This document shows, one piece after another, positions 113 through 224 of a stretch of 64,000 bases of DNA. The stretch's first letter is position 1, and each line of letters starts with the position of its first letter. This stretch comes from Rhodospirillaceae bacterium MC!. GTDB taxonomy: Bacteria > Pseudomonadota > Alphaproteobacteria > MC1. The notes beneath the pieces were generated by a model that made no database searches, was not told the origin of the DNA, and was given only the letters and a program-made list of their open reading frames with translations. The translations under genes were made by a program, and so were the position numbers. The stretch is from the NCBI GenBank assembly GCA_002632265.1, contig NQOV01000012.1, forward strand, positions 1-64,000, read 5' to 3'.

Positions 113-224
113 AAAGGAGCGTGAAAAAGCACTCATTCAGTCGTTTTAAGCCATGCTCATGTATGTGGTGTATACACCACGCATAGCTTAAAACAACTGA
201 CTAAGCACTTTTTCCCACTCCTTT
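113..224. repeat. Palindromic element, family 1 copy A (44-bp arms, bulge TCATGTAT, apical GTGGTGTATACACCAC)
   Basis: Left arm AAAGGAGCGTGAAAAAGCACTCATTCAGTCGTTTTAAGCCATGC aligns to the reverse complement of the right arm over 44 nt with 8 mismatches and no indels. Confidence 0.93.

What the first reader, a model, noticed from the sequence alone, without database searches (positions are those of the whole stretch)
113..224. Dispersed ~110-bp palindromic element with a fixed arm-bulge-hairpin plan
Copies at 113, 17802, 19865, 39641 and 44447, plus family 2 units at 7296-7853, 29396-29945 and 37624, share one layout: a 44-bp arm, a 7-8 nt one-sided bulge of type YATGTA, an apical hairpin of about 16 bp, then a 44-bp arm. 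Arm sequences differ between copies but pairing is kept (TTAAAGCATGGC/GCCATGCTTTAA, TTAAATTAGGGC/GCCCTAATTTAA, TTTTAAGCCATGC/GCATGGCTTAAAA, GGAGTGGG/CCCACTCC, GGATTGGG/CCCAATCC). This is covariation expected of a selected or actively templated structure. No ORF explains it.
Basis: seen in the sequence. Interest (0 to 1): 0.85.

Follow-up and report, generated by a model that had tools for sequence, protein, structure and literature searches.

The report
Replication-oriented palindromes at gene ends
This bacterial genome carries at least 130 copies of a 110-base hairpin element that almost always sits directly after a gene's stop codon and points the same way as DNA replication; the same element with quite different arms occurs in a very distant alphaproteobacterium, which makes it an undescribed kind of repeat that probably spreads by an unknown mechanism.

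Summary
The genome (2.05 Mb, an isolated alphaproteobacterium) holds at least 131 units in 86 places, in two subfamilies; subfamily 2 forms head-to-tail arrays. Pairing is kept while arm letters change. (1) Orientation follows replication: about 81 of 85 places match the sign of GC skew, although only 65% of genes do. (2) 55 of 63 clusters with a same-strand upstream gene start within 10 nt of its stop codon (10 expected). (3) A very distant alphaproteobacterium (median protein identity 41%) has homologous elements with unrelated arms. They share a CTTATGTA bulge, a GTACAC apex and tandem C.A mismatches (GCAC/GCAC) at the same spacing as subfamily 2. A model built only from that genome finds the window's copies (E to 1e-11) and nothing in 876 kb of 44 other alphaproteobacteria. 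There too all 15 are leading-oriented and 11 follow stop codons. Arrays are polar: the stop-proximal unit is the most intact and resembles other loci. Seven searched mobile-element protein families gave only XerC. Best reading: a REP/MITE-like, non-autonomous hairpin element placed on the lagging-strand template at ends of co-directional genes. The mobilising agent and function are unknown.

The parts
113..224 (+). fam1 unit; arms 113-156 / 181-224, bulge 157-164, apical hairpin 165-180, tandem C.A mismatch 130-131 / 206-207 (inside GCAC 129-132 / 205-208)
7296..7406 (+). fam2 array, unit 1 (the array lies in the divergent region upstream of the flagellar gene at 4404..~7208, an exception to the stop-codon rule)
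7408..7518 (+). fam2 array, unit 2
7519..7629 (+). fam2 array, unit 3
7631..7741 (+). fam2 array, unit 4
7743..7853 (+). fam2 array, unit 5 (mismatched arms: left AAAGCATGGC, right GCCCTAATTT)
17792..17901 (+). fam1 unit, 6 nt after the stop of the phosphoribosyltransferase-like gene 17337-17786
19865..19974 (+). fam1 unit, abuts the stop of flhB (18780-19865)
29396..29502 (+). fam2 array, unit 1, left arm corrected to a perfect complement of the right; 8 nt after the stop of 27211-29388
29504..29611 (+). fam2 array, unit 2
29613..29720 (+). fam2 array, unit 3
29722..29828 (+). fam2 array, unit 4
29837..29943 (+). fam2 array, unit 5
37624..37734 (+). fam2 unit abutting the stop of a plant-type glutamate-cysteine ligase gene (36236-37624), followed by decayed unit remnants to about 37800
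39641..39752 (+). fam1 unit abutting the stop of an ABC-F-type ATPase gene (37962-39641)
44447..44557 (+). fam1 unit between two minus-strand genes (HSP20 gene 43952-44419 and 44652-45344): leading orientation without a same-strand upstream gene

Best explanation
A non-autonomous, mobile palindromic element that works as a single-stranded DNA hairpin at the replication fork. SHOWN: the '+' reading of each element lies on the strand that serves as lagging-strand template; it starts at the stop codon of a co-directional gene; arms are freely replaced while the bulge (YTTATGTA), the apex (GTACAC) and the tandem C.A mismatches are kept; stop-proximal units are the most intact and resemble units at other loci. 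INFERRED: the hairpin exposed on the lagging-strand template is recognised through its unpaired bases by an unidentified factor, or spread by fork-associated recombination and template switching. New copies arrive next to the stop codon and push older ones downstream, where they duplicate and decay. Insertions survive there because the gene stays intact; the resulting stable 3'-UTR hairpin may also be kept for an effect on mRNA ends or translation termination, as reported for REPs.
For: Orientation: contig GC-skew sign agrees with element strand in 17 of 17 contig segments. Genome-wide it is 80:5 in the listing, 81:4 after correcting C11:47297, which reads '-', against genes 255:138; element-abutting genes are 55:1. 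Orientation is still leading in 9 of 10 clusters whose upstream gene is antisense. The switch on contig C18 coincides with the skew switch near 74 kb. Second genome: 15 of 15 '+' under skew +0.16 to +0.24, while long open frames there are 97:111 by strand. Stop-codon position: 55 of 63 within 10 nt, 10.2 expected; second genome 11 of 15, plus one 19 nt after tmRNA. Mobility and polarity: unit 1 scores best in 26 of 29 arrays (counted); its nearest relative is at another locus in 21 of 24, while for units 3+ it is in the same array in 19 of 27. Conserved core.
Against: No Y1/HUH, DDE_1 (74), DDE_3 (58), rve (75), IS110 (73) or reverse transcriptase (57) was found in the genome (95.5% complete); the only tyrosine recombinase looks like XerC beside a DUF484-like gene (17, 37). 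No empty site or target duplication could be shown, because no close relative was found. First-unit similarity between loci could also come from purifying selection or gene conversion. The complementary strand, not this one, folds more stably.
Confidence: 0.42

Rival explanations
1. A selected 3'-UTR RNA structure. The sense transcript of the upstream gene carries the hairpin directly after the stop codon, where it protects the 3' end, stops transcription or slows translation termination; spread is secondary.
For: Sense position directly after stop codons in two unrelated genomes; very stable fold; strong covariation. REPs are known to lie downstream of coding regions and to supply stop codons (PMC3733652).
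Against: Does not explain why only co-directional genes carry it (55:1; second genome 15:0 with genes 97:111), nor leading orientation where no sense gene lies upstream (9 of 10). The sense strand is the weaker folder. My simple scan shows no shift in downstream terminators (7 of 77 against 11 of 98 controls).
Confidence: 0.25
2. Orientation set by survival. Palindromes insert both ways, but copies whose more stable strand lies on the lagging-strand template are deleted during replication; the C.A mismatches weaken the hairpin on the exposed strand.
For: The strand on the lagging template is the weaker folder in 40/42, 47/53 and 15/15 copies with DNA parameters; C.A mismatches become G.T pairs on the other strand; central deletion remnants exist.
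Against: Both strands fold very stably (about -23 against -30 kcal/mol), so the difference may be too small. It does not explain the stop-codon position or the conserved spacing of the mismatches in two genomes.
Confidence: 0.13
3. The functional molecule is an RNA made from the complementary strand, using conserved G.U pairs.
For: Conserved C.A mismatches at three sites would be G.U pairs, including a tandem 5'-UG/GU motif, on the complementary strand; that strand folds better in all three sets.
Against: Its transcription would run against the upstream gene and the fork; outside the fixed CA/CA sites fam2 has more G.T on the + strand (my subtraction); no RNA data.
Confidence: 0.08
4. A polarity signal for chromosome handling, such as KOPS-type skewed motifs.
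For: About 95% leading-strand skew.
Against: KOPS are short motifs, not 110-bp palindromes tied to stop codons; in the second genome the copies were found in only part of the sampled chromosome.
Confidence: 0.05
5. Neutral palindromes kept perfect only by template switching, with no selection.
For: Blockwise corrected copies (L056:1482, window:29396); template switching makes compensatory changes (PMC8794818) and is strand-biased (PMC7202029).
Against: Templating would erase the bulge and mismatches, which are kept in two genomes at the same spacing.
Confidence: 0.07

Closest known systems
REP / BIME / REPIN elements with RAYT (TnpA_REP, Y1 HUH transposase)
   Same: High-copy extragenic palindromes with an unpaired feature, mostly downstream of genes, termini can supply stop codons (PMC3733652); IS200/IS605 relatives act on the lagging-strand template (PMC6006769).
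   Different: 110 bp instead of 20-40 bp, no GTAG foot, head-to-tail arrays instead of inverted pairs, no Y1 transposase found, near-complete replication orientation.
MITE-like bacterial repeats: ERIC/IRU, RUP, Correia/NEMIS, YPAL/RU-2, RPE
   Same: 100-170 bp, terminal inverted repeats, dispersed, some near or fused to gene ends (PMC2229807).
   Different: No donor IS family found, arms turned over while the apex is conserved, position fixed at the stop codon, leading-strand orientation; no target duplication shown.
CIR (CcrM-associated intergenic repeats) of Caulobacter/Brucella
   Same: Alphaproteobacterial intergenic repeats of similar kind that form a stem by end-to-end pairing (PMC2229807).
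   Different: CIR carry a GANTC methylation site; a fixed GANTC was not seen in these elements by eye. Not tested systematically.
Integron attC sites
   Same: Imperfect palindromes just after a stop codon, recognised as folded single strands through unpaired bases (own knowledge).
   Different: No integron integrase, no RYYYAAC/GTTRRRY boxes seen, not attached to gene cassettes.

Membership tests
REP/RAYT | Y1 (PF01797) transposase in the genome | tested here: not met
   no match in own genome; controls positive
REP/RAYT | GTAG/GTGG tetranucleotide at hairpin foot | tested here: not met
   left ends read TAA/TAG without a fixed preceding G
REP/RAYT | 20-40 bp unit, pairs in opposite orientation | tested here: not met
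   about 110 bp, arrays head-to-tail
MITE | terminal inverted repeats | tested here: met
   TAAAGGAG...CTCCTTTA, TAGGATTG...CAATCCTA
MITE | target site duplication / empty sites | not testable with these tools
   no close relative with an empty site found
MITE | related full-length IS in the genome | tested here: not met
   DDE_1, DDE_3, rve, IS110 absent; other families not searched
Integron attC | integron integrase and R boxes | tested here: not met
   only one tyrosine recombinase, XerC-like; no GTTRRRY box seen
Structured RNA family in Rfam | covariance model match | tested here: not met
   none at gathering score on elements; only weak miRNA-precursor look-alikes
This new family (two genomes) | model from one genome finds the other, with specificity | tested here: met
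   44 matches in G000 stretches, 0 in 876 kb of 44 other genomes

The most novel reading that the evidence does not exclude
An ancient, undescribed class of mobile hairpin DNA in Alphaproteobacteria, recognised as a folded single strand by its bulge, apex and tandem mismatches, that inserts with fixed polarity at stop codons of co-directional genes by a route that needs no known transposase, building arrays whose newest unit is always next to the gene.
Probability: 0.25. Interest if true: 0.9.

Novelty: new variant of a known kind. Interest (0 to 1): 0.7.

Why it matters
Small bacterial palindromes are common, but their mobilising agents are often unknown. This family obeys two sharp rules, replication orientation and stop-codon position, in two very distant genomes with unrelated arms. 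That separates what is recognised (bulge, apex, mismatches) from what merely pairs. It makes the question of how replication and transcription steer repeat insertion testable, and gives a search signature for a mobiliser in genomes with almost no known transposases.

Tried and rejected
Exact-core scan of 85,488 genomes: no match, own genome left out. Viral-contig scans failed on the server three times. Plasmid and phage BLAST with both genomes' elements: none. Arm-based models in relatives: R1 none in 58; R2 one weak hit in 394 others that first looked like chance (34 bits) but turned out to be the second genome. Naming the organism by argG failed: the gene is fusobacterial-like (78% to Propionigenium), a likely transfer. 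Intrinsic-terminator explanation: no enrichment or depletion downstream. Target-site consensus: nothing beyond TAA/TAG at the left end; stop-codon usage does not decide it, since TGA is rare genome-wide. A regex comparison of inner-arm subtypes inside arrays mixed two positions and was discarded. Sampling 20 kb or less from 60 other class members found no core hit and R3 none in 44 of them, so the family is patchy or mostly absent; thin sampling cannot exclude it per genome.

Full report
What is there. The window (G000:C2:1-64000) holds sixteen intact ~110-bp units, all on the + strand, in eight places. Each is a long imperfect palindrome: outer arms of about 44 nt, a 7-8 nt bulge on the 5' side (CTTATGTA and variants), and a small apical hairpin. 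Fam1 reads AAAGGRGYGTGAAAAAGCACTCATTCAG...; fam2 reads GGATTGTGATAAATGGGCTAATMTGCACC.... Both carry GCAC on each arm, so that C.A and A.C lie opposite each other as a tandem mismatch. Genome-wide there are at least 131 units in 86 clusters; fam2 forms head-to-tail arrays of up to six units.

Covariation. With explicit structures, 89.5% (fam1), 90.9% (fam2) and 95.5% (second genome) of cells pair. Both-side changes are 134, 156 and 42 against 49, 43 and 9 in shuffles, with no shuffle as high. The structures were derived from these alignments, so they have an advantage over the slid controls; the shuffles and the size of the effect carry the argument. Part of the covariation is templated: L056:1482-1588 and window:29396-29502 are corrected in blocks to perfect palindromes. 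Template switching is known to do this (PMC8794818) and to be strand-biased (PMC7202029). Templating cannot explain why the bulge and mismatches persist.

Replication orientation. Contigs are oriented arbitrarily, yet strand is nearly uniform per contig and matches the sign of GC skew in 17 of 17 segments. On C18 elements switch from - to + across the skew change near 74 kb, next to an AT-rich stretch at 69-73 kb, as expected for an origin; dnaA itself lies on C17. The count is 80:5 in the listing, 81:4 after correcting C11:47297. Genes are 255:138 in the same stretches, while element-abutting genes are 55:1. Binomial p is about 3e-11 against the gene proportion. Of ten clusters whose upstream neighbour is antisense, nine are still leading-oriented, so gene sense alone is not the cause.

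Stop codons. Of 63 clusters with a same-strand upstream gene, 55 start within 10 nt of its stop codon, against 10.2 expected for uniform placement in the intergenic space. Right ends show no such preference for convergent stops (5 against 5.0). The element's own left end is TAA/TAG and often is the stop codon. In a few cases (L014:4365, L041:1494, L049:1324, L066:1390) the frame ends at TGA inside the element. FlhB is full length (361 aa, homologues about 353-357 aa), so at least this gene is not truncated. Gene ends were called by longest ORF, not by a gene finder.

Array polarity. In 26 of 29 fam2 arrays the stop-proximal unit has the highest model score (counted). The nearest relative of unit 1 is at another locus in 21 of 24 arrays (94.7% against 85.5% mean identity), while units 3 and later have theirs in the same array in 19 of 27. 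This fits repeated arrival next to the stop codon plus local duplication and decay behind it. Stronger constraint on the stop-proximal unit is the alternative.

A second genome. A weak hit (34 bits) led to G203, a 1.5-Mb, 57% GC alphaproteobacterium of another family, close to a MAG labelled Blastochloris viridis (89% in one protein). Its proteins share a median 41% identity with G000 over 57 best hits. Forty stretches of 20 kb gave 15 good copies, all +. The arms are unrelated (CGCGGGCTAAAACGGCCCCCCAGCACTTTTTGGCGTGG), but CTTATGTA, GTACAC and GCAC/GCAC are there. The most common spacings are the same as in fam2: 12 nt from GCAC to the bulge (41/53 and 8/15) and 17 nt from TACA to GCAC (36/53 and 8/15). 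A model built only from G203 finds 44 matches in 150 kb of G000, E down to 1.4e-11, nearly all on the known strand, and nothing at E<=1 in 876 kb from 44 other class members. In G203 long open frames are 97:111 by strand while elements are 15:0; 11 of 15 start within 17 nt of a long same-strand frame's end, and one starts 19 nt after tmRNA. Both placement rules therefore recur. No negative-skew region of G203 with elements was seen, so the flip could not be tested there.

Which strand acts. The lagging-template strand (+) folds less well than its complement in 40/42, 47/53 and 15/15 copies with DNA parameters, because its C.A mismatches are G.T on the other strand. This may mean that unpaired bases on the exposed strand are the recognition marks (my preference, because it goes with replication orientation), that weak folding on the exposed strand is needed for survival, or that the other strand is the functional molecule. 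The data do not decide.

Mobiliser. Y1, DDE_1, DDE_3, rve, IS110 and reverse transcriptase families are absent from G000; the one tyrosine recombinase looks like XerC. Completeness is 95.5%, and other families and G203 were not searched. The spread of the elements therefore lacks a known agent.

Verdict. Structurally and by position this resembles REP and MITE-type repeats, but it fails the defining tests of REPs and lacks a donor IS; REPs too can supply stop codons (PMC3733652). I call it a new variant of a known kind, with a real chance of being a new class.

Noticed in passing
whole genome G000: No match to Y1, DDE_1, DDE_3, rve, IS110 or reverse-transcriptase families in a 2-Mb genome that carries more than 130 repeat units; transposase-poor genome.
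   Followed up: partly
window 49439-50677: argG is closest to Fusobacteria/Clostridia (78% to Propionigenium maris) in an alphaproteobacterium: likely horizontal transfer.
   Followed up: no
window 8051-10136: Three tandem paralogues, the first a nitroreductase-family gene (repeat families D3, D4, D6).
   Followed up: no
G000:C14:86-197 (L011) and window 113-224: Two contig starts share the same element and its flanks (98% identical): segmental duplication or assembly edge.
   Followed up: no
L031:1537, L172:1867-1976, L049:3241: Three of the four lagging-oriented copies carry the CTAAGGTA/CTAAAGTA bulge subtype instead of CTTATGTA.
   Followed up: no
G203:C2 and C1: Elements were found at C2:578k-989k and C1:30-33k; none in the sampled stretches of C2:1-540k or in the other C1 stretches apart from a weak partial match at C1:4k.
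   Followed up: partly
window 7296-7853: A five-unit array lies in the 5' region of the FlgE-like gene 4404..~7208 (annotated ORF start 7367 lies inside the element), away from any same-strand stop.
   Followed up: no
window 10314-11282: RecJ/DHH-like protein matching only the N-terminal part of RecJ models.
   Followed up: no
G000 ORFs: TGA is rare as stop codon (16 of 383 non-element genes).
   Followed up: no
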